Position numbers and translations under genes: made by a program. DNA of 64,000 bases from Kutzneria kofuensis (lineage in GTDB: Bacteria > Actinomycetota > Actinomycetes > Mycobacteriales > Pseudonocardiaceae): the NCBI RefSeq assembly GCF_014203355.1, contig NZ_JACHIR010000001.1, forward strand, positions 7,628,038-7,692,037. The letters are read 5' to 3'. Position 1 is the first letter of the stretch. Every line of letters begins with the position of its first letter. Under the pieces are notes generated by a model, which worked only from the letters and a program-made list of their open reading frames with translations, ran no database searches and had not been told where the DNA came from. This document shows, piece after piece, positions 2,331-40,449 of the stretch.

Positions 2331-3093
2331 CACCCTGCGCGTGCCCGAGCCGCTGATCCGGGCGGGCGCGCTGATCAAGTACAACTCGCTGCTGCGGCTG
2401 CGCGACCCGTCCCAGCTGATCAGCTACCTGGTCGCGCCGATGGTGTTCATGGTGATGTTCCAGCCGCTGTACACCAAGGCCCTGAGCTACGGCTCGATCC
2501 AGGCCGTCACCGGGCAGCTGATGATGTTCTCGGTGTTCGCCATGTCCATCGTCGCCAACTCGATCTTCGTCGAACGGGAGTGGCTGACCTGGGACCGGCT
2601 GCGCGCCAGCCGCGCCGCCCGGGCCGAACTCCTCATCGGCAAGGCCCTTCCGGTGTTCGTCGTGCTGCTCATCCAGCAGGCCGTGCTGATCGTCTTCGGC
2701 TGGGCCGTGGTCGGCATGCCGTTCCCCAAGTCCATCTGGCTGCTCACCCTGGCCATGTGCGTGTGGGGATTCGCCCTGCTCGGCATGGGCGCGATGCTCG
2801 CGACGATCGTGCGCAGCCGCGGCGACCTGTTCGTCGCGTGCGACGTCGGCGCGCTGCTGATCAGCTCCATCGGCGGCGCCATCCTGCCCGTCGACCTGAT
2901 GCCGTCCTGGGCGCAGGCGGTCACCCTGTTCTCGCCCGGCACCTACGGCCTGTCCATGCTGCGCTCCGCCGTGCAGGGCGACGTCGGCGGGACCTTGCAG
3001 CCGGCGCTGATCTGCGTGGTCATCGGGCTGGTCTGCGGCACGGTGGCCACGTTCCGGCTGGCCCACGGCTGGGGCCGCAGCCACCTGGTGTGA
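2320..3093 (+). CDS. ABC-2 type transporter permease
   Basis: This 257-residue integral membrane protein is the partner of the preceding ATPase. It starts at the ATG at 2320, 11 bases inside the ATPase gene, giving an N-terminus of MSTDTLRVPEP; longer readings in the same frame have implausible arginine/threonine-rich composition. About six hydrophobic segments are visible, among them YLVAPMVFMVMF, a VFVVLLIQQAVLIVFGW stretch, and a final ALICVVIGLVCGTVATF stretch. It has the layout of ABC-2 permeases of the daunorubicin-resistance (DrrB-like) type. It probably exports the product made by the adjacent PKS operon. It is followed by strong hairpins that separate it from the converging biosynthetic operon. 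Confidence 0.9.
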   Translation: MSTDTLRVPEPLIRAGALIKYNSLLRLRDPSQLISYLVAPMVFMVMFQPLYTKALSYGSIQAVTGQLMMFSVFAMSIVANSIFVEREWLTWDRLRASRAARAELLIGKALPVFVVLLIQQAVLIVFGWAVVGMPFPKSIWLLTLAMCVWGFALLGMGAMLATIVRSRGDLFVACDVGALLISSIGGAILPVDLMPSWAQAVTLFSPGTYGLSMLRSAVQGDVGGTLQPALICVVIGLVCGTVATFRLAHGWGRSHLV

Positions 3094-3262: not shown

Positions 3263-4012
3263 TCACACCAGGTGCGGCGTCAGCGCGTCGCCGATCGCCC
3301 GCAGCGTCTCCTCGGGCTGCTCCAGCACGGCGAAGTGGCCGCCGGCCAACGGATGCAGGCGGAAGCCGCCCGTGGTCTGGGCGGCCCAGCCGCGCAGGGA
3401 GTCGAACTCGGCCTGGCGGTCCTCGGTGCCGCCGATGGCCAGGATCGGCACCTCCAGCTCGGGCCGGGGCATGTAGCGGTAGGCGACCTTGGCGGTCAGG
3501 TCGGCGCGCAGCGGCGGCATGATCATTTTCAGGATCCTCCGGTCGGTCAGGTACTGCTCGGGGGTGCCGCCGAGGTCCCGCAGCAGCGCGATGATCTCCT
3601 CGTCGGTCACGGCGTCGTCGGCGAAGTCCTCGCTCTGCGGGGCGGAGAAGCCCGACACGACCAGGTGCACGGGCATCGGGCCGCCCAGGCCGCGGATCAC
3701 GTGCAGCAGCTCGAACGCCGTCAGCGCCCCGAAACTGTGGCCGTACACGGCGTACGGCGCGTCCTGGGCGTCGGCGAGCAGCGCCTCGGCCAGTTCGGCG
3801 GCGAGGTCGGGGATGCGGTCGTACGGCGTCTCCCGCAGCCGGGTCTCCCGGCCGGGATACTGCACGGGCAGCACGCTGACGCCCGGGATCCGGCCGATCC
3901 ACGGCCGGAACGCGGACGCCGAGCCGCCGGCGTGCGGCAGGCAGTACAGCCGAAGGCCGCCCCCGGTGTCCGGAAAGGGCAGCCAACGGCTGTGACCGAC
4001 GGTGGCGGTCAC
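3263..4012 (-). CDS. Type II thioesterase
   Basis: This 249-residue alpha/beta hydrolase is of the GrsT/RedJ type. Such enzymes clear mis-acylated carrier proteins in PKS and NRPS systems and occasionally release product. The nucleophile elbow is GHSFG with Ser93, the N-terminal LYCLPHAGGSA motif is diagnostic of the family, and the catalytic His sits in GGHFAVLE near the C-terminus. I chose the GTG at 4012 because it gives the conserved N-terminus and overlaps the FkbH stop by 4 bases (GTGA). It is the last gene of the operon. No thioesterase domain is fused to the last PKS, so a release role is possible but unproven. Confidence 0.92.
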   Translation of the reverse strand: MTATVGHSRWLPFPDTGGGLRLYCLPHAGGSASAFRPWIGRIPGVSVLPVQYPGRETRLRETPYDRIPDLAAELAEALLADAQDAPYAVYGHSFGALTAFELLHVIRGLGGPMPVHLVVSGFSAPQSEDFADDAVTDEEIIALLRDLGGTPEQYLTDRRILKMIMPPLRADLTAKVAYRYMPRPELEVPILAIGGTEDRQAEFDSLRGWAAQTTGGFRLHPLAGGHFAVLEQPEETLRAIGDALTPHLV

Positions 4013-5079
4013 TCCACCACCTCCATCACCACGTAGCCGGGCGGCGGCTGGATCTGGCTCAGGTCGGCGGCCAGCACCACGTGCTTGCCGTCGCGGGACG
4101 CCTCGCGGAAACCGCTGAAGGCGTAGGTGATCTGCATCATCCGGTTCCGCCCGGTCTCCACGAAGTCGGCCCGCAGGCCGGCGCCGGCGGCCCGGGCCAG
4201 GCCCATGATGTGTCCAAGCAGGACGGTGCCGACGCCGCGGGACATCACCCGGCACGACATCAGCATCATGTTCAGCCGCCAGTCCGGGGATCCCTTCTCC
4301 ACCAGGGCGAGCCCGATCTTCCCGTACGAGCCGAACCGGTCGGTCAGCGACGCCACCAGCAGCAGGTGGTCCGGCGACTCCCGCAGCTCGTCCAACTCGT
4401 CGTAGGAGTACGTGCGGCCGGTGGAGTTCAGCTGGTTCGTGCGCACCGTCAACTCCTCGGCGCGCTGCAGGTCCTCCCGCCGGGCCGGCGCGATGGTGAA
4501 CGTCATGCCCAGGCTGGCCAGGAACTCCTCGCTGGTGCCGACGAAGTCGGACTCGATCTCGTCCCGCGCCAGCTGGCTCTGGTACATGCCCCGCCGCTGC
4601 GCCGATTCGTCCGTGACGAACCGTGGCCGGAACTCCGGGCGTCGCAACACCTCGTCCATCACGGCACTGTCCACACAGGTCACCTGCGGCAGCGCGTGCC
4701 CGACCTCGGCCAGCTCGAACTCCTGGTCGTCGACGAACGCGAACGCGTCCAGCCCCAGGTTGAGCTTGGCGGCGATGCGCTCGATCGACGAGGACTTGGC
4801 GTTCCACGAGATCTGCGGGAACAGGAACATCTCGGCCAGGCCGAGCTCGGTCAGCTTGGCCATGGCGGCCTCGTGGTCGTTCTTGCTGGCCACGGAGTTC
4901 AGCACGCCCATCGCGTCCAGCCGGTGGATGTGGTCCACAACGGACTGCCGGACGGCGACCGCGTCGTCCTCCAACAGAACGCCGTCCCACAGCGTGTTGT
5001 CGAGGTCCCACACGACACACTTGATCTTGCCCTGGGCCGGTTTGGTCCAACCCCGTTCGTCCAACGCTGCGGTGGTCAC
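4009..5079 (-). CDS. FkbH-like HAD phosphatase/glyceryltransferase
   Basis: This 356-residue protein belongs to the HAD-IIIC FkbH family. Family members bind 1,3-bisphosphoglycerate, remove a phosphate and load a glyceryl unit on a dedicated ACP. The HAD motif I is DLDNT with Asp25 and Asp27, and a GNAT-like C-terminal half follows from about residue 190, starting around VGTSEEFLASLGM. It begins at the GTG at 5079, overlapping the acyl-CoA dehydrogenase stop by 4 bases, and its own TGA overlaps the thioesterase start. With the adjoining dehydrogenases and ACP it makes the methoxymalonyl/hydroxymalonyl-ACP cassette known from FK520, ansamitocin and zwittermicin pathways. No O-methyltransferase gene accompanies it. 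Confidence 0.92.
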   Translation of the reverse strand: MTTAALDERGWTKPAQGKIKCVVWDLDNTLWDGVLLEDDAVAVRQSVVDHIHRLDAMGVLNSVASKNDHEAAMAKLTELGLAEMFLFPQISWNAKSSSIERIAAKLNLGLDAFAFVDDQEFELAEVGHALPQVTCVDSAVMDEVLRRPEFRPRFVTDESAQRRGMYQSQLARDEIESDFVGTSEEFLASLGMTFTIAPARREDLQRAEELTVRTNQLNSTGRTYSYDELDELRESPDHLLLVASLTDRFGSYGKIGLALVEKGSPDWRLNMMLMSCRVMSRGVGTVLLGHIMGLARAAGAGLRADFVETGRNRMMQITYAFSGFREASRDGKHVVLAADLSQIQPPPGYVVMEVVE

Positions 5080-6209
5080 GGCTCCCACTTCCGGTAGGCC
5101 TCGGCAGCGATGGTCATCCGCTGGATCTCCGTGCTGCCCTCGATGATCTCCATGACTTTGGCGTCCCGGTAGAACCGCCCGACCGGGAACTCCGGGCTGC
5201 ACCCGTTGGCGCCGTGGATCTGCACCGCCTCGGACGCGTGCCGGGCGGCGGCGGTGGACGCGAAGTACTTCGCGATCCACGTGGCCATGATCGTCGCGGC
5301 GTCGCCGCGGTCCTTGAGCCGGCCGGCCTCGGCCAGCAGCAGCCGGGCGGCGCGCACGTCGGTGACCATGTCCGACAGCTTCGCCTGGATCAGCGGCAGG
5401 TCCCGCAGCGCCGTGCCGCCGACCCGGCGCTGCGCCGCGTACGCCGAACACGCGTCGATGCAGGCCTGGATGATGCCGACCGAACCGGCGGCCACGCTGT
5501 AGCGGCCGAGGTCCAGCGTGCCGGTGAGCACCATGCCGGAGGCGAAACCACTCGGCCCCAGCAGGGCTTCCGGCCCGAGCACGACATCCGAGAACGCGAT
5601 CTCGGCCAGCATCGACGACCGCGTGCCGAGCATGTCGTCGATCGGGTTCACCAACACGCCGGGGGCGTTGCTGGGCACCAGCAGCGCGATCGTGCTGGCC
5701 GGCCCCTGGGCGAACACCAGGAACAGGTCGGCCCGCTGACCGTTGGTGGTCCACTTCTTCACGCCGTTGAGCAGCCAACCGCCGTTGTGCGGCACGGCGG
5801 TCGTGGTGATCGCCGCCGTGTCGCTGCCGGCTCCCGGTTCGGACAGGCAGAACGCGCCGAGCGTCCGGCCGGTGGCCAGCTCCGGTCCCCACTGCTGGAT
5901 CTGCGCGTCGGTGCCGAAGCGTTGCAGCGCCCACGACAGCATGGTGTGCACGGTGAGCAGGCTGCGCACCGACGAGCAGCCGCGGCCGACCTCCTCGTGG
6001 ATCTCGCCGAGCGTCACCATGTCGATGCCGGCGCCGCCGAACTCGGGCGGCAGGAACGGGGCCCACAGGCCGGCGGCGGCGATCCGGTCCAGCAACTCCT
6101 CCGGGATCGCGCCGGCCCGGTCCCAGGCGTCCGCGTCGGGCCGGATCTCCGAGTCCACGAAGGACCGCGCGTACGCCCGGTCGATCGCGGGGGCCAACTG
6201 CTGGGTCAT
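5076..6209 (-). CDS. Acyl-CoA (acyl-ACP) dehydrogenase of hydroxymalonyl cassette
   Basis: This 377-residue FAD enzyme has the full acyl-CoA dehydrogenase fold. The substrate/FAD motif is CLSEPGAGSD near residue 130 and the catalytic base is Glu357 in the C-terminal MEIIEGSTEIQ motif. In FkbI-type pathways the homologue works on ACP-bound 2-hydroxy-3-oxopropionate on the route from glyceryl-ACP to hydroxymalonyl-ACP. The ATG at 6209 gives MTQQLAPAID and an upstream AAGGAG-like site. It lies between the ACP gene (13 bases upstream) and the FkbH gene, which it overlaps by 4 bases. That gene order supports a function in extender-unit synthesis rather than fatty-acid oxidation. Confidence 0.9.
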   Translation of the reverse strand: MTQQLAPAIDRAYARSFVDSEIRPDADAWDRAGAIPEELLDRIAAAGLWAPFLPPEFGGAGIDMVTLGEIHEEVGRGCSSVRSLLTVHTMLSWALQRFGTDAQIQQWGPELATGRTLGAFCLSEPGAGSDTAAITTTAVPHNGGWLLNGVKKWTTNGQRADLFLVFAQGPASTIALLVPSNAPGVLVNPIDDMLGTRSSMLAEIAFSDVVLGPEALLGPSGFASGMVLTGTLDLGRYSVAAGSVGIIQACIDACSAYAAQRRVGGTALRDLPLIQAKLSDMVTDVRAARLLLAEAGRLKDRGDAATIMATWIAKYFASTAAARHASEAVQIHGANGCSPEFPVGRFYRDAKVMEIIEGSTEIQRMTIAAEAYRKWEP

Positions 6210-6222
6210 GTCACGCTCCTTG

Positions 6223-6471
6223 TCAGACGACCGCGGACCGCAGGCCGTCCACCAGTTCGGTCATCGCCTTGGCGGTGCGGAAGTTGTCGATGCGCAGCTC
6301 GTCGTTGGGGATGGTGACGGTGAACTCCTTCTCGATGAACATCACCAGCTCCATGGCGAACAGGGAGTTGATGTAGCCCAGGGAGAAGATGTCCTCGGTG
6401 TCGGTGATGTCCGCCTGCGGGAAGCGGTTGGTGATGAAGGCGAGAATCCGCGCCGTGGTGTCGTTGCTCAT
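6223..6471 (-). CDS. Discrete acyl carrier protein for hydroxymalonyl unit
   Basis: This 82-residue carrier protein has its phosphopantetheine serine at Ser36 in LGYINSLFAMEL. That GxINSL form is characteristic of FkbJ-type ACPs that carry glyceryl and methoxymalonyl units. The ATG at 6471 gives MSNDTTARIL and lies just behind a GGGGCAGCG-like site; upstream in-frame sequence is arginine-rich and unlikely to be translated. It sits between the 3-hydroxyacyl-CoA dehydrogenase and acyl-CoA dehydrogenase genes. It should be glycerated by the FkbH-like protein, oxidised in place by the two dehydrogenases, and then serve as donor to a PKS acyltransferase domain. Confidence 0.92.
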   Translation of the reverse strand: MSNDTTARILAFITNRFPQADITDTEDIFSLGYINSLFAMELVMFIEKEFTVTIPNDELRIDNFRTAKAMTELVDGLRSAVV

Positions 6472-6482
6472 GTCGCTGCCCC

Positions 6483-7328
6483 TCAGCTGTTGTAGGTGTA
6501 GAAGCCACGGCCGCTCTTGCGTCCGTGCAGTCCGGCGTCGGTCATCTGCTTGAGCAGCGGGCACGGCCGGTACTTGCTGTCCGCGTAGTGCTCGTAGAGC
6601 ACCTCGACGCTGTAGAGAATGGTGTCCACGCCGATCAGGTCGGCGGTCTCCAGCGGCCCCATCGGGTGGCCGAAGCAGCCGCGGAACACGTCGTCCACCG
6701 ATTCGGCGGTGGCCACACCCTCGTGCACCAGGTACGCCGCCTCGTTGATGGTCAGCATCAGCACCCGGTTGGACACGAAGCCGGACGCGTCCTTCACGTC
6801 CACCCAGCGCTTGCCCATGCTGGTCAACAGGTCCCGGGTGCGCTGCAGGGTCTCCGGCGTGGTGTGGAAGCCGGGGATCAGCTCCACCACCGGCTTGGCC
6901 GGCACCGGGTTCATGAAGTGCACGCCGACGACCCGCTCCGGGTGGCCGCCCACGGCGGCGATCCGGGTGATCGGGATCGCGGAGGTGTTGGCCACCACCA
7001 CGGTGTCGGCCGGCAGGATCCGGTCCAGCTCCGCGTGCACCTCCCGCTTGATCTCCCAGTTCTCGGTGACGTTCTCGATCACCAGCTCCGCCTTGGCCAG
7101 CGCCTCCAGGCCGACGGCGGTGGTGATGCGGGCCAGCACCTCGTCCGGGTCCAGGGTGGGGCCGCCCATCATGCGGGACAGGCGGCAGTTGCGGTAGATC
7201 GCGGTCCGGGCGTCGGCCAGGACCTCGTCGCTGGTGTCGACGAGCACGACGTCGTGCCCGCCGGTGGCCACGTTCTGCGCGACGCCGATGCCCATCACAC
7301 CCGCGCCCACCACGCCGATCACTGCCAT
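6483..7328 (-). CDS. 3-hydroxyacyl-CoA (acyl-ACP) dehydrogenase of hydroxymalonyl cassette
   Basis: This 281-residue NAD-dependent dehydrogenase opens with the Rossmann motif GVVGAGVMGIGVA. It has the 3-hydroxyacyl-CoA dehydrogenase catalytic region (VGVHFMNPVP) and C-terminal domain. FkbK-type homologues oxidise the C3 hydroxyl of glyceryl-ACP to the aldehyde. The ATG at 7328 gives MAVIGVVGAG and overlaps the end of the last PKS gene by 10 bases. Together with the ACP, acyl-CoA dehydrogenase and FkbH-like genes it makes a complete glycerate-to-hydroxymalonyl route. Primary beta-oxidation is the alternative role, but the gene order argues strongly against it. Confidence 0.9.
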   Translation of the reverse strand: MAVIGVVGAGVMGIGVAQNVATGGHDVVLVDTSDEVLADARTAIYRNCRLSRMMGGPTLDPDEVLARITTAVGLEALAKAELVIENVTENWEIKREVHAELDRILPADTVVVANTSAIPITRIAAVGGHPERVVGVHFMNPVPAKPVVELIPGFHTTPETLQRTRDLLTSMGKRWVDVKDASGFVSNRVLMLTINEAAYLVHEGVATAESVDDVFRGCFGHPMGPLETADLIGVDTILYSVEVLYEHYADSKYRPCPLLKQMTDAGLHGRKSGRGFYTYNS

Positions 7329-10300
7329 GACTGCTCCGTTTCCGTGTTGGTGTCCAGGACCTGGGCGACGAGCGCCCGCACGGTGGGCAGCTCGAACAGC
7401 GTCGCGGTGGGGACCGAGACGCCGAGGCGTTCCCTGACCAGCGCCAGCATGTGCAGCGCGATCAGCGAGTTGCCCCCGAGGTCGAAGAAGTTGTCCCGCG
7501 TCCCGACCGGTTCCACGCCGAGCACGGACGACCAGATGTCGGCCAGCGCGCGCTCGTTGTCGTCGCCGGGCGCCACAAACGGTTGCGGCAGCTCGGGTCG
7601 CGGGTATCGCTTGGTTGTCGTCTGTTGCCGGGGCAGGGTGTGGACGGCGCTCCTGACCGGCAACCGGTCGTTGAGACCGCCGGCGGCGACCACGAGCCGG
7701 CCGCCGTGCCCGACCACCCGGTCGAAGGCGTTGAGTGCCTCGGCGCGGGTCATCGCGTGCTTGGCCATGGTCGCGCCGATCCGGCCGTCCAGCCGGTCGA
7801 GCGTGCCGGGCCAGGTGTCCCAGGCCGCGCACGTCCAGTTCTCGTTGCGGGCCAAGGCGGTCAGCGCCGCGTTGGCCGCCGCGTACGCGCCGAGTGTCAC
7901 GCCGCCGAGCACGGACGAGGTGGACGAGAACAGCACGCACCAGTCGGGGCGGTGCGGCTCGGGCAGTGTGGCGATGATCGTCGCCAGCACCCGTGCGCCT
8001 TCGACCTTAGCACCGAAGTGCTGCGCGACAACGGATTCGCCGCTTTGTGCCAACGGGACGAGTTCGCTCGGGCCGGCCGACGCGGCGGCGTGCACCACGC
8101 CGTCGATCCGGCCCTCCTCGAACAGCGCCCGCATGGCGTCCACGTCCGTGACGTCGATCCGACGGACCTCCGCGTTCGGCACGTCGATCTCGCCGCCGCC
8201 GCGGCTGGTGAGGATGATCCTCTTCGCCCCGGCGTCCGCGAAGTGCTGCGCCAGTTGGCGTCCGACCGTGCCGAGACCGCCGGTGACGAGATAGGTGCCG
8301 CCCGGCTTGAGCGTGGCGGCGCTCGGCGTGACGGGCTCGTAGTCGGGGGAGTAGCGGCGGTCGGCTCGGTGCGCGACCAGCACGGCGTCGGTGGGGCGGG
8401 TCAGCTCGGCGGCAAGCGCTTGCGCCGCCTCGGTGACCGTGTAGGCGGGGTCGAGATCGACGTTGCGCGCCTCCAGGTTGAGGTATTCCTGGTTGGCGAC
8501 GACGGGAAGCGCCGCGATGGCCGCTTGGATCGGCGACACCGGCTCTCCGCCGACCGCCTGGCCGCCGCGCGTCACGACCAGCACGGTCAGGTCCTCGCCG
8601 GTACTGAGCGTCCGGGCCGTGCCGGTGACGGCGGTGACCTCGTCGACGGCGTCCAGAGCGGACAGATCGACGACGGTTCCGTAGAGGTCGCCGCAGCTCA
8701 GCTCGGCGTCGAAACCGGACTGGCACAGCAGTTCCGTCAACGCCTCGCCGACACCGCCGGCGTCCGGGACGATCACGAACTGTGCCGGCTCGGCGGCATC
8801 ACCGGCCTGCGCCGGCCGCCAGCGCTGTGCCAGCAACTCGACGTTGTCCCTGACGACGGGCTTCGGCGCGTCAATCCAGTACCGCTCGCGCTGGAACGGA
8901 TAGGTCGGCAGACCGACCCGGCCGAGCTCGCGATCGCCCTGGTAGCCGGCCCAGTCGATGGACACGCCGGCCAGCCACAGCCGGCCGGCGGCCTCGGCCA
9001 GCACCGACTCGCGGCGGTCGTCGGCGGCCGGCACGGTGGAGACGATCAGCGGCCAGCGGTCCGGCGCGCAGTCGCGGTGGCCGCGGACCATCGCGCCGAG
9101 CGACTGGCCGGGGCCGATCTCCACCAGCGCGAGGTCGCCCTGCGCCAGCACGGTGGCCACCGCGGTGTCGAACTGGACCGGGGCGCACATGTGCTCGGCC
9201 CAGTACTCCGGGGCGGGGGCTTCCGTGACCAACTGGCCGGTGACGTTGGAGACGTACGGGATGGTCGGCGCGTGCAGCGTGACGTTCGCCTTGATCCACT
9301 CGGTCAGCTCGTCCCGGATCGGGGCCAGCATGCGGGAGTGGAAGGCGTGCGTGGTGGCGAGCGGGCGGCAGGGGATCGAGTCCGCGGCCAACTTCTCCTT
9401 CAGCTCCGTGATCGATTCGCCGGATACGACCGTCAGCTCCGGGCCGTTGATCGCCGCGATGTCCACGCCGTCGAGCCGGTGCCGGAGCTCCTCGGCGGAG
9501 CGGGGGATGGCGGCCATCGCGCCGCCCGGCAGAGCGTTGATCAGCTTGGCCCGGTGGGCGACCAGCCGCAGGGCGTCTTCCAGCGACAACACGCCGGCCA
9601 GGCAGGCGGCGACGTACTCGCCGAGGCTGTATCCGACCAGCACGGACGGCTCCACGCCCCAGGACCGAACCAGCTGCGCCAGCGCGTATTCGACGGCGAA
9701 CAGGGCCGGGTGCAGGCAGTCCGTGGCGTCGGCGGTCGACGTGGTGGCGCGGCCCATGAGCTGCGCCAGCCCGGTGGAGGTGGCCTTGCGCGGGGTGAGC
9801 ATCTCCTGCAGCGGTTCGAGGCCGACGATCTCCATGCAGGCGTCGATGGCCATGGCGAAGACCGGCTCGGTCTCGTAGAGGTGCCGGGCCATGCCGGGGT
9901 ACTGCTCGCCCGCGCCGGCGAGCAGGAAGCCGACACCGCGGTCGGTCCGGCCGTCGTGGCGGGTCAGGAAGTCGCCGTCGCGCAGCTTGCCCGCGGCTTC
10001 TTGCGCGTCGCCGGCGACGACGATCCGGCGGTGCGGGAACACGGACCGGCCGTTCTGCAACGTGTTCGCCACATCGGCCAGGGAGTCCTCCGTCGCGGCA
10101 AGGTGATCCGCGAGCCTGGCGCCCATCTCGTCGGCGGCCTTGGCGTTTCGTGCCGACCAGACGAGGAGCTCCTGCCGCGGCGACGGATCCCGGACGACTG
10201 TCGGCGCTTCCTCGACGATCACGTGTGCGTTGGTGCCGCCGATGCCGAAGGCGCTGACGCCGGCCCGGCGCTTGCGCTCGCCGCGTGGCCAGGGCTGCGT

Positions 10301-11527
10301 TTCCGTGACGACTTCGAGGTTGGCGCTGCCGGTCGCGAGCTGCGGGTTCGGGGTCCGCAGGTTCAGTGTCGGCGGGATCTCGTCGCGGTGCAGGGAAAGC
10401 GCCGTCTTGATCAGTCCGGTCACGCCGGCGGCCCGGTCGAGGTGGCCGACGTTCGTCTTGATGGAGCCGATGCGCAGCCGCTCGCCGTGGAAGACCCGTT
10501 GCAGGGCAGCGATTTCCGACGCGTCGCCCAGGGCCGTGCCGGTGCCGTGCGCCTCGACGTAGTCGATGTCCGACGGCTCCAGGCCGGCCGCCGCCAGCGC
10601 CTCGGCGATCACCGCGGCCTGCCCCTCGACCCCTGGTGCCGTGAAGCCGACCTTGCGGCCGGCGTCGTTGTTGACGGCCCAGCCACGCAGCACCGCGTAC
10701 ACGCGGTCGCCGTCGGCGAGCGCGTCTTCCAGGCGCCGCAAGGAAACCACGCCGACACCGCCGCCGAGCGGGGCGCCGAGGCCGGCCGCGTCGAAGGCCC
10801 GGCACTCGCCATCCGGCGGTGCGATGCCGCCCTCCTGGTACAGGTAGCCGACCTGGTGTGGCACCGCCAGCGACACGCCGCCGGCCAGCGCGAGGTCGCA
10901 CTCGAAGTTGGCCAGGCTGCTCGCCGCCACACACACCGCCACCAGCGACGTCGAGCACGCGCTCTGGATCGCGAACGCCGGCCCGGACAGGCCGAGCAGG
11001 TGGGCGACGCGGGTGGCGAGCGTGTCCTTCTCGTTGGCCAGCGCCACCGCCATGTCGCCCATCTCGCGGGCGGCCCCGGCCGGCGCCAGGTTGTTGATCA
11101 GGTACGTGCTCCAGGCCGTGCCGGCGAAAACCCCGACCGCGCCGTCGAACCGCGCCGGGTCGCAGCCGGCGTCCTCCAGCGCGTGCCAGCAGTGCTCCAG
11201 CAGCAGGCGGTGCTGCGGGTCGAGGATCTGCGCCTCCTTCGGGTTGATGCCGAAGAAGCCGGCGTCGAACTCCTCGACGCCGTCGATCACCGCGCCCGCC
11301 TTCACGTAGGCGGGGTCGTCGATCAGCTCCGGGGACACGCCGTTGGCCAGCAGCTCCGCGTCGGTGAACCGGCGGATGCCGGACCGGCCGGCGCGGATGG
11401 TGGCCCACAGCTCGTCGACGTCGGCGGCGCCGGGGAAGCGGCCCGCCATGCCGACCAGGGCGATGTCGGTGCTCTGGATCTCGTCGCTCACTTCTGCCTC
11501 GCCGGTTTCGTCGATCTCCGCCGCCAT
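7319..11527 (-). CDS. Type I PKS, module 3: KS-AT-KR-ACP
   Basis: This 1,402-residue single-module PKS has KS at about 20-440 (Cys191 in SACSTS, His in EAHGTGT and NVGH), AT at about 535-850 (Ser634 in GYSLGEY, specificity motif HAFH, usually malonyl-type), KR at about 1065-1250 (TGGLGTVG cofactor loop, Tyr1215) and ACP at about 1320-1390 (Ser1354 in GGNSL). The KR lacks the LDD motif. Neither a coiled-coil docking helix at the N-terminus nor a thioesterase or reductase domain at the C-terminus is visible, so chain release is unexplained. The KS opening, GYSLGEY AT and GGNSL carrier resemble PKSs of NRPS-PKS hybrids more than classical macrolide modules. It starts 7 bases after the upstream PKS stop, with GAGGTGAGGA before the ATG. 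Confidence 0.93.
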   Translation of the reverse strand: MAAEIDETGEAEVSDEIQSTDIALVGMAGRFPGAADVDELWATIRAGRSGIRRFTDAELLANGVSPELIDDPAYVKAGAVIDGVEEFDAGFFGINPKEAQILDPQHRLLLEHCWHALEDAGCDPARFDGAVGVFAGTAWSTYLINNLAPAGAAREMGDMAVALANEKDTLATRVAHLLGLSGPAFAIQSACSTSLVAVCVAASSLANFECDLALAGGVSLAVPHQVGYLYQEGGIAPPDGECRAFDAAGLGAPLGGGVGVVSLRRLEDALADGDRVYAVLRGWAVNNDAGRKVGFTAPGVEGQAAVIAEALAAAGLEPSDIDYVEAHGTGTALGDASEIAALQRVFHGERLRIGSIKTNVGHLDRAAGVTGLIKTALSLHRDEIPPTLNLRTPNPQLATGSANLEVVTETQPWPRGERKRRAGVSAFGIGGTNAHVIVEEAPTVVRDPSPRQELLVWSARNAKAADEMGARLADHLAATEDSLADVANTLQNGRSVFPHRRIVVAGDAQEAAGKLRDGDFLTRHDGRTDRGVGFLLAGAGEQYPGMARHLYETEPVFAMAIDACMEIVGLEPLQEMLTPRKATSTGLAQLMGRATTSTADATDCLHPALFAVEYALAQLVRSWGVEPSVLVGYSLGEYVAACLAGVLSLEDALRLVAHRAKLINALPGGAMAAIPRSAEELRHRLDGVDIAAINGPELTVVSGESITELKEKLAADSIPCRPLATTHAFHSRMLAPIRDELTEWIKANVTLHAPTIPYVSNVTGQLVTEAPAPEYWAEHMCAPVQFDTAVATVLAQGDLALVEIGPGQSLGAMVRGHRDCAPDRWPLIVSTVPAADDRRESVLAEAAGRLWLAGVSIDWAGYQGDRELGRVGLPTYPFQRERYWIDAPKPVVRDNVELLAQRWRPAQAGDAAEPAQFVIVPDAGGVGEALTELLCQSGFDAELSCGDLYGTVVDLSALDAVDEVTAVTGTARTLSTGEDLTVLVVTRGGQAVGGEPVSPIQAAIAALPVVANQEYLNLEARNVDLDPAYTVTEAAQALAAELTRPTDAVLVAHRADRRYSPDYEPVTPSAATLKPGGTYLVTGGLGTVGRQLAQHFADAGAKRIILTSRGGGEIDVPNAEVRRIDVTDVDAMRALFEEGRIDGVVHAAASAGPSELVPLAQSGESVVAQHFGAKVEGARVLATIIATLPEPHRPDWCVLFSSTSSVLGGVTLGAYAAANAALTALARNENWTCAAWDTWPGTLDRLDGRIGATMAKHAMTRAEALNAFDRVVGHGGRLVVAAGGLNDRLPVRSAVHTLPRQQTTTKRYPRPELPQPFVAPGDDNERALADIWSSVLGVEPVGTRDNFFDLGGNSLIALHMLALVRERLGVSVPTATLFELPTVRALVAQVLDTNTETEQSWQ

Positions 11528-11534
11528 GTCTTCC

Positions 11535-15989
<4,455 letters not shown>

Positions 15990-16000
15990 AGCAATCCCTT

Positions 16001-19000
16001 TCACAGCTGTGTGTCGATGAAGGCGAAGATCTCCTCGTCGGAGGAGAGATCAAGGCCGGTCTCCGGGACGAGGGTCTGCAGCGTCTCCTGCAGCACAGCG
16101 GCCAACCGGTCGCGGCCGTCCTCGTCCAGTGTGGACAGTTCGATCCGGCCGAGCGCCTCGTGCAGCAGGTCCTCGGGCGACGGCTCGGCCGGCACCAGCT
16201 CGCCGGCCAGGTACTCGGCCAGCTTGGTCACCGTGGGGTGGTTGAACACCAGCGACGCCGGCAGCCGCAGGCCCGTCTCCGCGCCGAGCTTGTTGCGCAG
16301 CTCGACCGAGGTGAGCGAGTCGAGACCCTGTTCCCGGAGCGGCTTGTCCGGATCGACCGTGGCGGCGGAGCGGTGCCCGAGCGCCACGGCGACCTTGTCC
16401 CGGACCAGCCGGAAGATCGAGTCGGTGTCGAACCGCGTCGGCGCGGCCTCGACCGTGACGGTTCGGCGCGGCTTGAAGATGGTGCGCAGCACGGCCGGCA
16501 CGTCGTCGCCGTCGCGGCGCCAGCGCGCCGCCACGAGTTGGGCGTTCGGCTCGCGGATGGCCGCGTCGAAGATGTCCAGCCCCTGTTGCACGCTCAGCGG
16601 CGCCACCCAGGCGACCTTGTCCACGTGCGCGGTCATCGTGGTCGGCAGCGCCCACAGGCCCCAGGCGATCGACGTCGCCGGCAGGCCAAGGCTCTGTCGG
16701 TGCGCCGCAAGCGCGTCAAGGTAGCTGTTGGCAGCGGCGTAGTTGCCCTGGCCGGGGTTGCCGAGCACGCCGGCGACCGAGGAGAACAGCACGAACGCCT
16801 TGAGGTCCGGGATCAGTTCGTGCAGGAGCCAGGCCGCGTCGGCCTTGGGCTTGAGCACCGCGTCGAGCTTCTCGGGCGTCAGCTCCGTGACGGTCGCGTC
16901 GTCGAGGACACCGGCCGCGTGGATCACGGCGGTGATGCGCCGACCCTTGATCAGCTCGGACAGTTGGGCGCGGTCGGAGACGTCGCAGGCCACGACCTCG
17001 CCGGGCAGATCCGTTGTGCCGCCGCGCCGGGACACCAGCAGCAGGTCCGTGATGCCCTGGGAAGCCAGGTGCCGGGCGACCAGTGCGCCGAGGCCGCTCG
17101 TGCCGCCGGTGATCAGCACGGTTCCGTCGCCGAGGTCCTGAGTGGACTCGGAGTTGGCGTGCCGGACGATTCGTGGCACCAGGAACTTGCCGTCCCGGAC
17201 GGCGAACTGCGGCTCGTCGGTGGTCGGGACCTCGTCCTCCGCGCAGTCGGCCAGCACGAACCGGCCGGGGTGCTCCGACTGCGCCGAACGGACCAGCCCC
17301 CAGATCTTGGCGCCGTCCAGTGTGGACGGATCGGCGAGGAACACCAGCCGCTCGTCGGTGTCCTTCTCCACCCACTGCTGCACCTGGGCCAGCACGCCGG
17401 CGAGGTCGCTCGGCTGGGCAACGGTCAGCGACGCCGTGCCGGTTGGCTCGGCCTCGACCCAGTCGACCCGGTACAGCTCCGCCGTCGCGACGCCGCCCTT
17501 CGGGGCCGGCGCCAGGGTCAGCGACTCGACGCCGCCGATCTGCGTGCCGGATTCGTCATAGAGAGCAAGGGATCCGTTGCTCAGGCGAACACGGAGCTTG
17601 TCCGCGCCGCGGCCCGTGAACCACACGCCGGACCAGGCGAACGGCAGCTGCAACTCGTCGGCGTCGAGCACGAGGATGTGCAGGGCGGCGTCCAGCAGGG
17701 CAGGGTGCACGGTGAAGTCGCCGGCATCGGGGACTTCCACCTCGACGAGAAGATCGTCCCCGTCACGCCAGGCGCTCCGCAGGCCCTGGAACGCCGGCCC
17801 GTACTCGTATCCGCTGGCCGCCAGCCGGTCGTAGGCGTCGGTGAGGTCGATCGGCGTGCCGGTCGGCCAGGTGTGCAGCCGGCCGGCGACGCGGGGGCCG
17901 TCGGCGAGGAAGCCGGACGCGTGCTTGACCCAGTCGCCGTCGGTGCGGGAGTGGATGGCCAGCGACCGCCGGCCGTTCTCCTCGCCGCCGACCGTGACCT
18001 GGAGCTGGACGGCGCCGGTCGCGGGGAGGACGAGCGGGGCGTGCAGGGTCAGGTCCTCGATCTGGTCGCCGTCGGCGGCGGTCAGTGCGAGGTCGACGAA
18101 GGCAGTGCCGGGCAACAGGACCGTGCCGTTGACGGCGTGATCGACCACCCAGGGGGCGCTGTGCCGCGACACCTTGCCGGTCAGCAGCCGGCCGCCGGTG
18201 TCCGCGACCGGGACGGCCTCGGCGAGCAACGGGTGGCTGCCGCTTTCGGCGTTGTGCAGCCAGAATCGCTGCCGGTCGAAGGCGTACGTGGGGAGATCGA
18301 CGTGCTCGGTCACCGGTCCGACGATCTTCGGCCAGTCCACCGGCGCGCCCAGCGTGTACGCGGTGGCGGCGGCGATCAGGAACTGGTGCTGGCCACCCTC
18401 GTTGCGGCGCAACGTGCCCACGGCCGTGCCGTCCACGCCCTCGTCGGCGAGGATCTCCCGGACGGCGCCTGCCAGGATCGGATGCGGGCTGACCTCGATG
18501 AACAGCGGCCGCCGGTGGTCGCGGAAGGCCCGCACCGCGGTGTCGAAGCCGACCGGGTCGGCCAGGTTGCGGTACCAGTAGTCGGGGGTCATCGCCGTGC
18601 CGGGGATGAACTCGCCGTAGCAGGTGGAGCAGATCTTGGTAGTCGCCTCGGCCGGTTGGAGGCTGCCGATCTGCCGCAGCAGCTCGTCGCGGACGGCCTC
18701 GACGTGCGGGGTGTGCGCCGCGTAGGCGACGGGTGTGCGGCGAAGCTGCACGTCATCGCCCTGGGCGGCGACGAATTCGTCGATCGCGTCGAGGTCGCCG
18801 GCGATCACCGTGGCGGACGGGCCGTTGTCCACGGCCACCCACAGCTGGCCCGGCCAGGGAGCGATCCGCTCGCGAACCTCGTTCGCCGGCAGCCCGACCG
18901 CCAGCACGCCGCCCGTGCCGTCGAGCGCCCCGACGATCTGGCCGCGCAGGGCGCTGATCTTGGCGGAATCGGTCAGCGTCAGCGCCCCGGCCACGGCCGC

Positions 19001-22000
19001 CGCGGCGATCTCACCCTGGGAGTGCCCGACGACCGCCGCCGGCTCGACGCCGATCGACCGCCACAGCTTCGCCAGGGCCACCATCAGCGCGAACAACACG
19101 GGCTGCACGACATCGGTGCCTTCCAGCGAAGGCGTTCCCTCCGTCAGGACGTCGATCACCGACCATCCCGTGTGTGGTTCGAGCGCCTCAGCGCAGCGCT
19201 TGAGCTCCTGCGCGAACGTCTCGTTCGCACGCAGCAACTCCACCGCCATGCCCACCCACTGCGCCCCCTGACCAGGGAAGACGAACACCGGCGTGACCTC
19301 GCCGGTCGCCTCCCCGGTGACCAGCGCCGGATGCGGCTCGCCGTCGGCCAATGCCCGGAGCGCCTCCCGCAGCTCGTCACGGGAGGACGCCAGCACCACG
19401 GCTCGATGGGCGAAGGAGGGCTTGCGCGCCAGCACCTTGGCCGCTGCCTGGAGGTCGCCGGTCTCGGCGAAGGCGGCCAGCCTTGAGCCCTGCGTGCGGA
19501 GCGACTTCTCGCTCCGTGCGGAGATCACCCAGAGCAGGGGACCGTCGACCGATGCGGGCCGGGCCGGCTCAACTCCCTCCACGATGACGTGCGCGTTCGT
19601 GCCGGAGATGCCGAAGCTCGACACCGCTGCCCGCCGCGGGCCAGCGGGCCACTGCTGGGCCTCGGTCAGCACCCGGCCGTTCCCCGACTCCCACTCCACT
19701 TTGGACGTCGGCCGGTCGACGTGCAGGGTCCGCGGCAACACGCCGTGCCGCATCGCCAGCACCATCTTGATCACGCCGGCGACACCGGCGGCGGCCTGGG
19801 CGTGGCCGATGTTGGACTTCACCGAGCCGAGCCAGACCGGGCGGTCGGCGGGGCGGTTCTGGCCGTAGGTGGCGAGAATGGCGTGCGCCTCGATGGGGTC
19901 GCCGAGAGCGGTGCCGGTGCCGTGCGCCTCGACCACGTCAACGTCCGCAGTGGACAGACCGGCGTCGGCCAGCGCCTTGCGGATCACCTGCTGCTGCGCA
20001 AGGCCGTTCGGCGCGGTCAGGCCGTTGCTGGCACCGTCCTGATTGACGGCGATTCCCCGGATGACGGCCAGCACCTGGTGGCCGTTGCGCTCGGCGTCGG
20101 ACAGGCGTTCCAGCAGGAGGACGCCGGCGCCCTCCGAGAACGAAGTGCCGTCGGCGTCCTCGGAGAATGCCTTGGCCCGGCCGTCGACGGACAGGCCGTT
20201 CTGGCGGGTGAACTCGACGAGGTTGCCGGGGTTGGCCATCAGCGTCGCGCCGCCGGCCAGCGCCAGCGAGCATTCCCCGCGCCGCAACGACTCCACGGCC
20301 AGCTGGATCGCCACCAGCGACGACGAGCAGGCGGTGTCGATCGTCAGCGCGGGGCCGTTGAGGCCGAAGGTGTACGCGATGCGGCCGGAGGCGACGCTCA
20401 GGGCGGTGCCAGTCATGAGGTGGCCGTCGACGACGCCGGTCGGCTGGTGCAGGCGCGGGCCGTAGTCCATGGCCATCGCGCCGACGAACACGCCGGTGGA
20501 CGAGCCGCGCAGGTCGGCGGGGTCGATGCCGGCGCGTTCCAACGCCTCCCACGAGACTTCCAGCATCAGCCGCTGCTGCGGCTCCATGGCCAGCGCCTCG
20601 CGCGGGCTGAGCCCGAAGAAGGCGGCGTCGAATGTGTCGGCGTCGTGCAGGAATCCGCCGTTGCGCGTCACGCACGCGCCGTCGAACAACGCGTCCAGGT
20701 CCCAGCCGCGGTTCGACGGCAGCGGCGTGACGGCATCTTCGCCGGATGCGATGAGCCGCCAGAACTCCTCCGGCGAGTTGGCCCCGCCGGGGTAGCGGCA
20801 GCCCATCGCGATCACGGCAATCGGGTCCGACCCCGGCGCTTGTGCCGGCACCGACACCTGCTGGTGCGCCGGGTTGCCGGGCTCGCCGGCCACCTGCCGC
20901 CGCGCGACAGTGGCCGGTTCGCCCGCCATCCCTTCCGGCTCGCCGGCCGCGCGCAGCGCCTCGACCACCCGCTGAGGGTTCGGATAGTCGTAGAGCAGCG
21001 AGGTCGGCAGCTTCCGCCCAGTCTGTGCCGAGAGCTGGGCGCGGAGGCGCATCAGCGAGTTCGAGTCGAACCCGAGTTCCTTGAACGGACGTGTCACGTC
21101 GATCCCCGACGCGTCCTTGTGTCCCAAAACGTTCGCGACCGCGGCGAGGACCGTCTCCCGCAGATCACCCGTCGGCGCAACCGTTTGCGCCGCGGCGACT
21201 TCGCCGTACCAGTGGCGTTCCCGCTGGAACCGGTACGTCGGCAGGTCGACCTTGCGGCCCTTGATCGCCCAGTCCACCGGCGCGCCGCCGACGTACGCCT
21301 CGGCCAGCGCCCGGCGGATCCGCTCGGTGCCGCCCTCGTCGCGACGGAGCGTGCCGATCACCGCGACCTCGTGGCCGGCCTCGTCCGCCGTCTCGTCGAT
21401 GCTGTTGAGCAGCAACGGGTGCGGGCTGCACTCGATGAACCGGCCGACGCCGTCGGCGAGGGCCCGCCGCGTCGCGTCGATGAACCGGACCGGCTGTCGC
21501 AGGTTGGCGAACCAGTACTCGGCGTCGAGTTCCCTGGTGTCCAGGGGTTCACCGGTGACCGTGGAGATGAACGTGACGTCGGTCGCTTGTGGACGGACCG
21601 CCGCGAACAGCGGCAGCAACTCGTCCCTGAGCACGTCAACCGCGGGGGAGTGGGACGCGTACGCCGCCGGCACGATCTTCGTCCGGACGTCGACCAGCTT
21701 CTCCTGCACCCCGGCCAACTCGTCCGCCGGACCGGCCAGGACAACCGACCTCGGGCCGTTCACGGCGGCGATCGTCACCCCCGGCGGCAGCACCTTGCCC
21801 ACCACCGACGCCGACGCGCCCACCGACATCATGCCGCCGCCGGTCAACCTCCCCGCGATCCTGCTCCGCAGCGCGATCACCCGCGCCCCGTCTTCCAGCG
21901 ACAACGCCCCGATCGCCGTTGCCGCGGCGACTTCGCCCTGCGAGTGCCCGAGCACCACATCCGGGGTGACTCCGTTGGCGCGCCACACCGCCGCCAGCGA

Positions 22001-23677
22001 CACCATCACCGCCCACAGCGCCGGCTGCACCACATCCACCCGGCTCAGATCACCCGCGTTACGAAGCACCTCCAGCACGTCGAAGTCGACGAACGGCTCC
22101 AACGCCGCCGCGCACTCCTCCAGCCGGCTCGTGAACACCGGCGACTCGTCGAGCAACGCCTGCGCCATCTCCACCCATTGCCCGCCCTGCCCGGGGAAGA
22201 CAAAGGCGGTCGAACCCGGCGAAACCTTGCCCACCACGACGTCTTCCGACTCCAGCGTCGTCAGCTCGCCGAAAACCACCGCTCGGTGCTCGAACTGGGT
22301 CCGGGTGTGCAGGAGCGAGTACGCGACATTGCCGTCCACAATGGACGAAAGCGCTTGCGCTTGGGCGCGAAGGGCCTGCGGGGAGCGCGCGGTGATGATG
22401 ATGGGGCCGTCCACCTCGGCGACCGGGTGCTCTTCGCGAGGCCCCTCCGCCACCACCAAGTGGCAGTTGGTCCCGCCCACGCCGAACGAGCTCACACCCG
22501 CGACCCGCCGACCCTGCGGCCACGCCTGCTTCTCCCGCACCACATCCAGGTTCAGCTCGCCGAACGGAATGTCCGGGTTCGGCGTCTCGAAGTTCAGGCT
22601 GGCCGGCAGGACACCGTTGCGCACGGAGAGGATCACCTTGAGCAGCCCGGCAATCCCGGCCGCGCCCTCCAGGTGCCCGATGTTGGTCTTCACGGAGCCG
22701 ACCAGCAGCTTCCGATCCGCCAACAACACAGCGCCGAGGGCACGGGCCTCGATGGGGTCGCCGACGCGGGTGCCGGTGCCGTGCAACTCCACGTATCCGA
22801 CCTCGGCCGGCGTAACGCCGGCTTGAGCGTGGGCGAGGCGGATGACCTCCTGCTGGGCCTCCCCATGGGGCACGGTCAGCCCGTCGCCGCCGCCGTCGTT
22901 GTTGACGGCGCCGCCGAGGATGACGGCGTGGATCCGGTCGCCGTCGGCGACCGCATTGGGCAGCGGCTTGAGGACGATGACGGCCCCGCCCTCGCCACGG
23001 ACATAGCCGTTGGCGCGGGCATCGAAGGTGTGGCAGCGGCCATCGGGGGACAGGGCCCCGAACTCGGCGACGGTGTCGGTGCCCTCGGGCAGCAGGTTCA
23101 GGTTGACGCCGCCGGCCAGGGCCAGCGAGCACGAACCGCGGCGCAGCTGCTCGCACGCGACCTGCACGGCGACGAGCGAAGACGACTGGCCGCTGTCCAC
23201 CGCGAGGCTGGGGCCGGTCAGCCCGAGCAGGTACGAGACGCGGTTGGCGATGAGGCTGCGGTGGGTGCCGGTGAGGGAATGGGGGCCGGCCCCCACCTGG
23301 GAGTGCAGGAGCGCGTAGTCGCCGTTGATGGCTCCGATCACGACGCCGGCGGCTTCGCCGCGCAGCGAATCGGGCGCGATCCGGGCGTTCTCCAACGCCT
23401 CCCACGACAGTTCCAGCACGAGCCGCTGCTGCGGATCCATTGCCGCCGCCTCGTTCGGCGAAATGCCGAAGAAAGCGGCGTCGAAACGGTCCACGTCGGC
23501 GATGAAACCGCCACGGCGGAACTCCGTCACGCCGGGCCAGCGGCCGTCCGGCGGCTCGGTGATCGCATCCGTGCCGGCGTCGAGCAGCCGCCAGAACTGC
23601 TCCGGGTCGGCCGCGCCCGGCAGCCGGCACGCGATTCCGACCACGGCGATCGGCTCGTTCGCAGCCATGCCAGTCAT
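16001..23677 (-). CDS. Type I PKS, loading + module 1: KSQ-AT-ACP-KS-AT-DH-KR-ACP
   Basis: This 2,558-residue protein starts the chain. The first KS has Gln164 instead of Cys (VDSGQSSS), the KSQ signature of a decarboxylating loading module. AT1 has Ser579 and motif YASH, implying methylmalonyl and thus a propionyl starter. ACP1 carries Ser872. Module 1 has KS Cys1117, AT Ser1553 with unusual motif YAAH, an intact DH (His1847 in [11 protein letters not shown], Asp1996), an LDD-containing B-type KR (Tyr2313) and ACP Ser2454, so an alpha,beta-unsaturated diketide is expected. The C-terminal 70 residues look like a docking tail. The ATG at 23677 has GGTGAG upstream and opens directly on the KS; the longer reading adds 33 arginine-rich residues. 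It is the first gene of the operon. Confidence 0.94.
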
Positions 23678-40398: not shown

Positions 40399-40449
40399 CG
40401 ACTGCTCGCTTCCTGGCCCGCGAGGCAGGGTGCGGACCACGTGCAGCGG

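What the first reader, a model, noticed from the sequence alone, without database searches (positions are those of the whole stretch)
3263..23677. Compact PKS operon predicting a short tetraketide with no release domain
Four carrier-protein modules in three proteins (KSQ-AT-ACP / KS-AT-DH-KR-ACP / KS-AT-KR-ACP / KS-AT-KR-ACP) end without a TE, reductase or condensation domain. All KS, KR and DH catalytic residues I checked are present. The chain could be released by the type II thioesterase, by transfer to an amine, or by an enzyme left of the window. I do not recognise a known cluster of this exact layout.
Basis: partly seen in the sequence, partly recalled or inferred. Interest (0 to 1): 0.75.

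Follow-up and report, generated by a model that had tools for sequence, protein, structure and literature searches.

The report
Hydroxymalonyl polyketide cluster with amide release
A soil bacterium of the genus Kutzneria carries a short, apparently intact assembly line that probably makes a sugar-like polyhydroxylated acid and hands it to an amino-acid-derived amine; the genes for that hand-over lie just outside the stretch that was read, and the product is unknown.

Summary
In detail: window 7319-23677 (-) encodes KSQ-AT-ACP / KS-AT-DH-KR-ACP / KS-AT-KR-ACP / KS-AT-KR-PCP in three proteins, catalytic residues intact, ending 14 residues after the last carrier match. It continues about 20 kb left of the window: a C domain fused to ATP-grasp, two free ACPs, a second PLP decarboxylase, two KASIII-type acyltransferase-like proteins, two acyl-CoA-dehydrogenase pairs, an AcpS and a free adenylation protein, but no further PKS module. 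Downstream lies a hydroxymalonyl-ACP cassette in the butyrolactol gene order; both KR-only ATs carry GYSLG as in ATs for ACP-bound extenders. Best reading: a bengamide-like polyhydroxy nonenoyl tetraketide, released by N-acylation of an ACP-bound omega-amino acid. Module logic matches the bengamide cluster, but its lysine NRPS and clustered MetAP are absent. Four Kutzneria genomes keep the cluster under purifying selection. Four clusters of other genera have one or more extra modules plus an AT-less terminal module that Kutzneria lacks. No characterised product was found.

The parts
1..20 (+). 3' end of free ACP2, which starts left of the window (G000:C1:7627797-7628057)
   Evidence: PP-binding PF00550, 38.1 bits; an ACP directly before the ligase in 8 of 8 clusters examined
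13..1503 (+). VinN-like amino-acid:ACP ligase (TIGR03098)
   Evidence: TIGR03098 685.8 bits, cut-off 592.35; VinN Asp230 and Arg331 positions conserved, Ser299 position is Thr
1497..2330 (+). ABC transporter ATPase (nearest model DrrA, below its cut-off)
2323..3093 (+). ABC transporter permease (start approximate; nearest model DrrB, below its cut-off)
3263..4009 (-). type II thioesterase (start approximate)
   Evidence: PF00975, 150.8 bits
4009..5079 (-). FkbH-domain protein (start approximate)
   Evidence: TIGR01686 286.9 bits, cut-off 146.65
5076..6209 (-). FkbI-type acyl-ACP dehydrogenase
   Evidence: PF00441, PF02770, PF02771
6223..6471 (-). FkbJ-type free ACP
6483..7328 (-). FkbK-type 3-hydroxyacyl dehydrogenase (start approximate)
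   Evidence: PF02737, PF00725
7319..11527 (-). PKS3: KS-AT-KR-PCP, no release domain
11535..15989 (-). PKS2: docking-KS-AT-KR-ACP
16001..23677 (-). PKS1: KSQ-AT-ACP-KS-AT-DH-KR-ACP
23951..25189 (+). BtrK/VinO-like PLP decarboxylase (TIGR03099)
   Evidence: TIGR03099 586.5 bits, cut-off 478.45; best solved relative BtrK, 264 bits
25177..27426 (+). SARP/AfsR-type regulator; last gene to the right for which a relative was found in the other genera's stretches

Best explanation
This is the right half of an intact hybrid PKS cluster. KSQ decarboxylates methylmalonyl to a propionyl starter; module 1 adds methylmalonyl and dehydrates; modules 2 and 3 each add hydroxymalonyl from the FkbK-J-I-H cassette and only ketoreduce. 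The predicted chain on the last carrier is about 2,3,4,5-tetrahydroxy-6-methylnon-6-enoyl, close to the bengamide acid. It is not released by a cis domain. It is passed to the amino group of an omega-amino acid (beta-alanine or GABA type) made on a free ACP by the ligase plus PLP decarboxylase pair(s). The amide is made by the free-standing C domain or the KASIII-type acyltransferase-like proteins encoded left of the window, and is then probably desaturated by an acyl-CoA-dehydrogenase pair. The type II TE is for editing. Shown: domains, active-site motifs, gene content, conservation, AT motifs. Inferred: substrates, order of steps, which enzyme makes the amide, product.
For: Architecture and active sites. 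Cassette order 3HCDH-ACP-ACAD-FkbH-TE as in butyrolactol orf19-23. Both KR-only ATs carry GYSLG (ZmaA GYSFG, ZmaF GYSLG) and lack a positive residue at the first RXR position, the proposed sign of ACP-bound extenders; in six clusters, 17 of 18 KR-only ATs are GYSxG (the 18th, in G061, is truncated) and 17 of 17 loading/DH-module ATs are GHSxG. Left-hand genes are co-conserved in G001, G002, G005, largely in G060 and partly in G061. C-domain HxxxD is intact in 7 of 7 aligned C domains. Kutzneria KASIII proteins keep Cys, His and GHxxGAD in 4 of 4 genomes and align with DpsC over the last third. Ligase, ACP and decarboxylase in 8 of 8 clusters. Bolagladin precedent: ligase, ACP, BtrK-like decarboxylase, proposed KASIII N-acylation, desaturation shown by deletion. 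dN/dS 0.05-0.45 for 20 genes in each of two comparisons.
Against: No product and no biochemistry. In G061, G062 and G035 no relative of the KASIII or ATP-grasp genes was found while the C domain is kept, and in G060 the KASIII relative has Asp in place of the catalytic His, so KASIII cannot be the general release enzyme of the family. The third RXR position is Arg in all 17 readable KR-only ATs, unlike ZmaA, and only 11 of 17 loading/DH-module ATs have Lys or Arg at the first position, so the RXR sign separates the classes less cleanly than GYS/GHS. The relatives use an extra terminal AT-less module, so its loss in Kutzneria could mean a shortened or impaired line. PKS3 of G005 is split between two frames. 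The amine could instead be a side-chain decoration.
Confidence: 0.57

Rival explanations
1. The type II thioesterase hydrolyses the tetraketide, or it lactonises by itself (4- or 5-OH), and the amino-acid enzymes make a separate moiety.
For: A TE lies directly downstream of the cassette in 8 of 8 clusters. Butyrolactol, with the same cassette order and a TE, has a lactone and no nitrogen is mentioned in the passages read.
Against: Ligase, decarboxylase, ACP and a C domain accompany the PKS in all five genera compared, which suggests one product. Of the nine shared proteins compared, the TE is the least conserved catalytic one (49-60% between genera), which would suit an editing enzyme.
Confidence: 0.2
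2. The Kutzneria cluster is a truncated remnant: it lost the second PKS3 module and the AT-less KS-(KR)-PCP protein and now makes a shunt product or nothing.
For: All four clusters of other genera examined have both. In four Kutzneria genomes the best match to the AT-less protein is PKS3 KS at 50-51%, against 67-69% for the KS of the true relatives. G060 is the nearest relative of the own cluster in 7 of 9 shared proteins, with TE tied and FkbK nearer to G061, so loss in Kutzneria is the simpler history. PKS3 of G005 is frame-split.
Against: dN/dS well below 1 for all 20 genes tested in both comparisons; active sites intact.
Confidence: 0.14
3. The ligase/decarboxylase/ACP set supplies an amino-acyl starter to the PKS, as in vicenistatin-type macrolactams.
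For: VinN- and VinO-like proteins and a VinM-like adenylation protein are the macrolactam starter set.
Against: PKS1 begins with KSQ-AT-ACP with an intact GHSQG AT, a self-loading starter module; the KSQ motif was caught in 5 of 6 clusters and missed by the pattern in G062. No acyltransferase outside the PKS appeared among the Pfam-scanned genes of window 1-27426 and L001, so no VinK counterpart was seen.
Confidence: 0.09

Closest known systems
Bengamide (ben) cluster, Myxococcus virescens
   Same: Three type I PKS genes, loading plus three modules, modules 2 and 3 using glycolate units from a methoxymalonyl-type cassette, then an amide bond to an amine.
   Different: Starter isobutyrate and malonate in module 1; ends with lysine added by an NRPS (benD) and carries a methionine aminopeptidase gene (benI). 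Here: KSQ loading, free C and A proteins, decarboxylase/ACP sets, no clustered MetAP. Sequence relation to BenA-C not tested.
Butyrolactol A cluster, Streptomyces
   Same: Hydroxymalonyl-ACP cassette in the same order followed by a TE, no O-methyltransferase near it.
   Different: Longer polyketide, tert-butyl starter; no amino-acid set mentioned in the passages read.
Bolagladin cluster, Burkholderia gladioli
   Same: VinN-like ligase, free ACP, BtrK-like decarboxylase, two KASIII homologues, acyl-CoA dehydrogenase giving N-acyl-dehydro-beta-alanine.
   Different: The acyl chain is a citrate-primed fatty acid, and an NRPS follows.
Vicenistatin-type beta-amino acid starter pathway (VinL/M/N/O)
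   Same: ACP, ligase, decarboxylase and VinM-like adenylation protein (that 8k4r is VinM is recalled).
   Different: There it starts the PKS; here the PKS has its own KSQ loading module.
Zwittermicin A
   Same: Hydroxymalonyl-ACP extender logic; ZmaA-AT is third in the list of solved relatives of the PKS2 KS-AT stretch.
   Different: Aminopolyol made with NRPS parts and aminomalonyl.

Membership tests
Hydroxymalonyl-ACP-using PKS | FkbH, FkbI, FkbK homologues and a free ACP beside the PKS | tested here: met
Hydroxymalonyl-ACP-using PKS | No O-methyltransferase (else methoxymalonyl) | tested here: inconclusive
   None among the Pfam- or NCBIfam-scanned genes of window 1-27426 and L001, but four small genes (the 243-aa protein and three far-left ones) match no family and no targeted search was run
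Hydroxymalonyl-ACP-using PKS | AT signature of ACP-bound extenders (GYSxG; hydrophobic rather than positive RXR) | tested here: inconclusive
   GYSLG and a non-positive first position in both ATs, but Arg at the third position
Bengamide-type cluster | Three PKS genes with loading plus three modules, the last two on glycolate units | tested here: met
   Module count and order met (ben description); glycolate use here is inferred from the cassette and AT motifs; the exact domain order of the ben modules is recalled
Bengamide-type cluster | Lysine-adding NRPS (benD) | tested here: not met
   Only free-standing C and A proteins among the annotated genes
Bengamide-type cluster | Clustered methionine aminopeptidase | tested here: not met
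   No TIGR00500 match inside the cluster in 8 of 8 genomes; the nearest is a below-cut-off match (45.6 bits) about 46 kb away in G005
Bengamide-type cluster | Sequence kinship with BenA-C | not testable with these tools
   The ben sequences were not reached
[quoted passage not shown]
   Asp230 and Arg331 identical, Ser299 replaced by Thr
VinN/VinO/VinL omega-amino-acyl-ACP pathway | BtrK-type PLP decarboxylase and a free ACP | tested here: met
Bolagladin-type N-acyl enamide formation | KASIII-type protein and acyl-CoA dehydrogenase together with ACP and decarboxylase | tested here: met
   In the four Kutzneria genomes and by gene content in G060 and L038; the G060 KASIII relative lacks the His
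Bolagladin-type N-acyl enamide formation | Catalysed N-acylation and desaturation | not testable with these tools
   Needs biochemistry

The most novel reading that the evidence does not exclude
A family of actinobacterial clusters uses a cis-AT, hydroxymalonyl-rich PKS without any TE domain whose chain is off-loaded by N-acylation of an ACP-bound, decarboxylated dicarboxylic amino acid, giving bengamide-like polyhydroxy acyl amides or enamides. The line has been lengthened or shortened between genera, with Kutzneria the shortest form, lacking an AT-less terminal module.
Probability: 0.35. Interest if true: 0.72.

Novelty: new variant of a known kind. Interest (0 to 1): 0.55.

Why it matters
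If right, it gives an actinobacterial route to bengamide-like polyhydroxy acids (bengamides are described as methionine aminopeptidase inhibitors) and a PKS release mode, amide transfer to an ACP-bound omega-amino acid; the nearest precedent I saw is bolagladin, which is fed by a fatty acid. The series of clusters from Kutzneria to Labedaea also shows how assembly lines gain or lose hydroxymalonyl-type modules, including AT-less ones inside a cis-AT system.

Tried and rejected
Rejected: (1) 'chain continues on a PKS module left of the window': the own-genome KS list shows none. (2) 'AT-less terminal module encoded elsewhere in the genome': the best match in each of four Kutzneria genomes is PKS3 itself at 50-51% (its list is cut after the better matches, and 97 candidates per Kutzneria genome were scored). 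(3) 'A bengamide proper': no lysine NRPS seen and no MetAP in the cluster. (4) 'Macrolactam starter set': KSQ loading argues against it. (5) Structure prediction of the conserved 243-aa protein L001:14025-14756 was uninformative (pLDDT 35.7) and not used. (6) Literature: ten searches listed no paper recognisable as being about this cluster; I looked at the listed titles and abstract starts, and the library holds open-licence papers only. PMC10232511, on Kutzneria genomes, was searched for six terms and the passages shown do not mention it; its supplements were not open to me. (7) Vancoresmycin as the product of the A. vancoresmycina relative was considered (listing) and set aside because I recall it as a much larger polyketide; not tested.

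Papers: only passages were read of PMC7756342, PMC11284099, PMC10232511, PMC4207774, PMC5355916, PMC6022970, PMC9228497 and PMC6163206; PMC10662134 was searched for six terms without a hit. Others were seen only in listings. Recalled, from no call: that PDB 3wvn/3wv4 is VinN (the residue numbering fits), 8k4r VinM, 6akd IdnL7; the domain order of the ben modules; the catalytic triads of DpsC/CerJ and of FabH; the HHxxxDG motif of C domains; the acidic class-I docking tail; YASH/GHSQG as methylmalonyl signs beyond what states.

Full report
WHAT IS THERE. The first KS is a KSQ (DSGQSSS), the other three have the active-site cysteine, both KS histidines are present in all four, the DH has HxxxGxxxxP and DxxxH, and all three KRs have the nucleotide motif and the catalytic tyrosine. 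PKS2 starts with a docking domain (PF08990) and PKS1 ends in an acidic tail of the kind that (recalled) partners it, which supports the order PKS1 to PKS2; PKS3 follows by exclusion. PKS3 stops 14 residues after its carrier match.

THE CASSETTE. Directly downstream and on the same strand lie a 3-hydroxyacyl dehydrogenase, an ACP, an acyl-CoA-dehydrogenase-like protein, an FkbH protein (TIGR01686, 286.9 bits against a cut-off of 146.65) and a thioesterase. Butyrolactol orf19-23 have the same five functions in the same order; there labelling supports hydroxymalonyl units, and no O-methyltransferase gene was found nearby (PMC5355916, passages). I saw no methyltransferase among the family-scanned genes here, though four small genes match no family, so hydroxymalonyl rather than methoxymalonyl is the better guess.

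WHICH MODULES USE IT. The ZmaA-AT paper (PMC4207774, passages) proposes that ATs for ACP-bound extenders have hydrophobic rather than positive residues in the RXR motif and lists GYSFG for ZmaA and GYSLG for ZmaF. One search lists 35 AT matches of six clusters (own, G005, G060, G061, G062, G035; G001 and G002 were left out of that scan). Of 18 ATs in modules without DH, loading modules aside, 17 have GYSxG with an H-A/P-F-H lid and Ala, Pro, Val or Gly at the first RXR position; the remaining one (G061, PKS3) is truncated and shows no motif. All 17 ATs of loading or DH modules have GHSxG. Against a simple reading, the third RXR position is Arg in all 17 readable KR-only ATs, and only 11 of the 17 loading/DH ATs have Lys or Arg at the first position. 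The solved relatives of the PKS2 KS-AT stretch are headed by two entries named only 'Polyketide synthase' (8xjy, 8xju) and then ZmaA (4qbu).

PREDICTED CHAIN. Propionyl (KSQ; GHSQG/YASH AT) + methylmalonyl (GHSQG/YAAH AT; DH and KR) + two hydroxymalonyl with KR gives 2,3,4,5-tetrahydroxy-6-methylnon-6-enoyl on the last carrier. This is inference from motifs. The bengamide acid arises from isobutyrate, malonate and two glycolate units, by three PKS genes, with an NRPS gene, a methoxymalonyl-type cassette and a methionine aminopeptidase gene (PMC6163206 and PMC9228497, passages). The logic is the same; no lysine NRPS was seen and no methionine aminopeptidase lies in the cluster in 8 of 8 genomes, the nearest being a below-cut-off match about 46 kb away in G005. 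Sequence kinship could not be tested.

LEFT OF THE WINDOW. The window is G000:C1:7628038-7692037. In L001 (G000:C1:7608038-7628037; positions below are in L001) I found, on +: a C-domain/ATP-grasp fusion (6971-9811), a BtrK-like decarboxylase (9805-11085), ACP1 (11082-11342), KASIII-a (11347-12291), an acyl-CoA-dehydrogenase pair (12288-12881 and 12884-14032), a 243-aa protein with no Pfam match (14025-14756), an AcpS (about 14750-15139), an adenylation protein (about 15136-16629) and KASIII-b (16626-17582); on -: a hydrolase-like gene (not family-scanned) and a LuxR-type regulator; then ACP2, which ends at window base 20. Further left on -: a second dehydrogenase pair, four small genes of which one matches GNAT acetyltransferases and three match nothing in Pfam, and a Tricorn/S41 peptidase. 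The peptidase and the four small genes recur in G001 and G005 and, at 53-62%, in G060 and G061; the second dehydrogenase pair recurs in G001, G005 and G061 (48-55%) but gave no such match in G060.

THE AMINO-ACID SET. The window ligase P0008 and decarboxylase P0011 are a TIGR03098/TIGR03099 pair, both above cut-off. Aligned with VinN, the ligase keeps Asp230 and Arg331 and has Thr for Ser299; Asp and Arg are found in 8 of 8 clusters, and the Thr in 7 of 8 by pattern and in the eighth, G062, by eye. VinN uses these residues for the amino and carboxyl groups of 3-methylaspartate and they are conserved in BolO (PMC7756342, passages; VinN/VinO/VinM roles: PMC11284099, passages). The best solved relative of both decarboxylases is BtrK. 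The adenylation protein is closest to 8k4r and 6akd, which I recall to be VinM and IdnL7. In the four Kutzneria genomes both KASIII proteins have NC(T/A)S, LPH and GHxxGAD; their last third aligns best with DpsC, which reads GHxxGGD there, and the Cys and His positions line up with FabH, so they look like acyltransferases rather than chain initiators. In G060 the one KASIII relative found by BLAST has Asp for the His. Bolagladin gives a precedent: ligase, ACP, decarboxylase, proposed N-acylation by KASIII, desaturation by an acyl-CoA dehydrogenase shown by deletion. The C domain keeps HxxxD in 7 of 7 sequences aligned over it, and the carrier-like domain behind it has no serine in 6 of 6 readable ones (the G060 row there covers only the ATP-grasp part, and G002 is interrupted by N).

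RELATIVES. Of 60 genomes searched (own included), 9 match the C/ATP-grasp protein, three of these only in the ATP-grasp part. Of 7 genomes of the genus (own plus six), 4 hold the cluster. KASIII-b was found in 6 of 150 family genomes at E up to 1e-40, own included. The named-collection scan gave nine loci: Kutzneria sp. 744, K. buriramensis, a 'Candidatus Melainabacteria' contig, Amycolatopsis vancoresmycina (G060), Actinacidiphila alni (G061), Labedaea rhizosphaerae (G035), Actinokineospora xionganensis (G062), Streptomyces sp. CBMA29, and a weak one in S. roseus (23%) that I dropped. G060, G061, G062 and G035 share the ligase, decarboxylase, ACP2, ABC pair, cassette, TE, LuxR and SARP genes and a C domain. 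KASIII, ATP-grasp, second decarboxylase, ACP1 and dehydrogenase pair occur together in Kutzneria, in G060 and (as far as the short contig reaches) in the Melainabacteria-labelled contig L038; A. alni and CBMA29 have only ACP1 and a dehydrogenase pair; G062 and G035 have none of them. The free adenylation protein was found in Kutzneria, G061 and G035, not in G060 or G062.

A SHORTENED LINE. All four of those clusters have one or more additional KS-AT-KR-PCP modules (in the first module of G061 PKS3 the AT is a stump) and a separate AT-less KS-(KR)-PCP protein encoded next to the ABC permease, in G062 next but one. In the own genome the permease stop (3093) and the TE stop (3263) are 170 bases apart, and in four Kutzneria genomes the AT-less protein finds only PKS3 KS at 50-51% as its best match. 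G060 is the closest to the own cluster in 7 of 9 shared proteins; TE is tied and FkbK is nearer to G061. So the extra modules are probably ancestral and lost in Kutzneria; no rooted tree was made. G061, G062 and G035 also have one or two more DH modules. In the PKS proteins of the own cluster, G060, G061, G062 and G035, at most 94 residues follow the last carrier, too few for a TE or reductase, so release in trans looks general.

IS IT ALIVE. dN/dS between own and G005, and own and G001, is 0.05-0.45 for the 20 genes tested in each, PKS genes 0.155-0.237 (the permease, FkbJ, SARP and far-left genes were not included). Against this, PKS3 of G005 is split over two frames, which could be real or an assembly error.

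VERDICT. A real, conserved, probably functional cluster that I could not match to a described one in the papers I could search. It combines known parts (hydroxymalonyl PKS, VinN/BtrK-type amino-acyl-ACP, KASIII or C-domain amide formation) in what looks like a new way.

Noticed in passing
L038 (CAJCJE010000273.1) and L017: Contigs of a bin labelled 'Candidatus Melainabacteria' carry pieces of this actinobacterial cluster at 57-82% identity; the bin looks mixed or mislabelled.
   Followed up: partly
L001:6971-9811, between the C domain and the ATP-grasp part: A carrier-like domain follows the C domain in six of six readable relatives but lacks the serine (Ala, Leu or Thr instead): a conserved dead carrier.
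   Followed up: partly
L001:14025-14756: A 243-aa protein conserved in Kutzneria and Amycolatopsis vancoresmycina with no Pfam match at 1e-5 and no NCBIfam match at 1e-10; AlphaFold2 gave no usable model.
   Followed up: partly
L056:2577-11780 (Actinacidiphila alni PKS3): The first module has only a stump of an AT (no GxSxG), a second AT-less module in a cis-AT line.
   Followed up: no
L001:1-5085: A Tricorn/S41 peptidase and four small genes (one GNAT-like) are conserved beside the cluster across three genera; roles unknown, perhaps removal of a protecting group.
   Followed up: partly
L053 (Amycolatopsis vancoresmycina), about 11165-13342: The KASIII relative has Asp where the catalytic His is expected.
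   Followed up: no
G005:C1:3796066-3800270: PKS3 orthologue split over two reading frames.
   Followed up: partly
window 40516-43539: A 1007-aa NACHT-domain protein to the right of the cluster.
   Followed up: no
window 38200-40440: An alpha-1,3-glucanase-like protein with a F5/8 type C domain.
   Followed up: no
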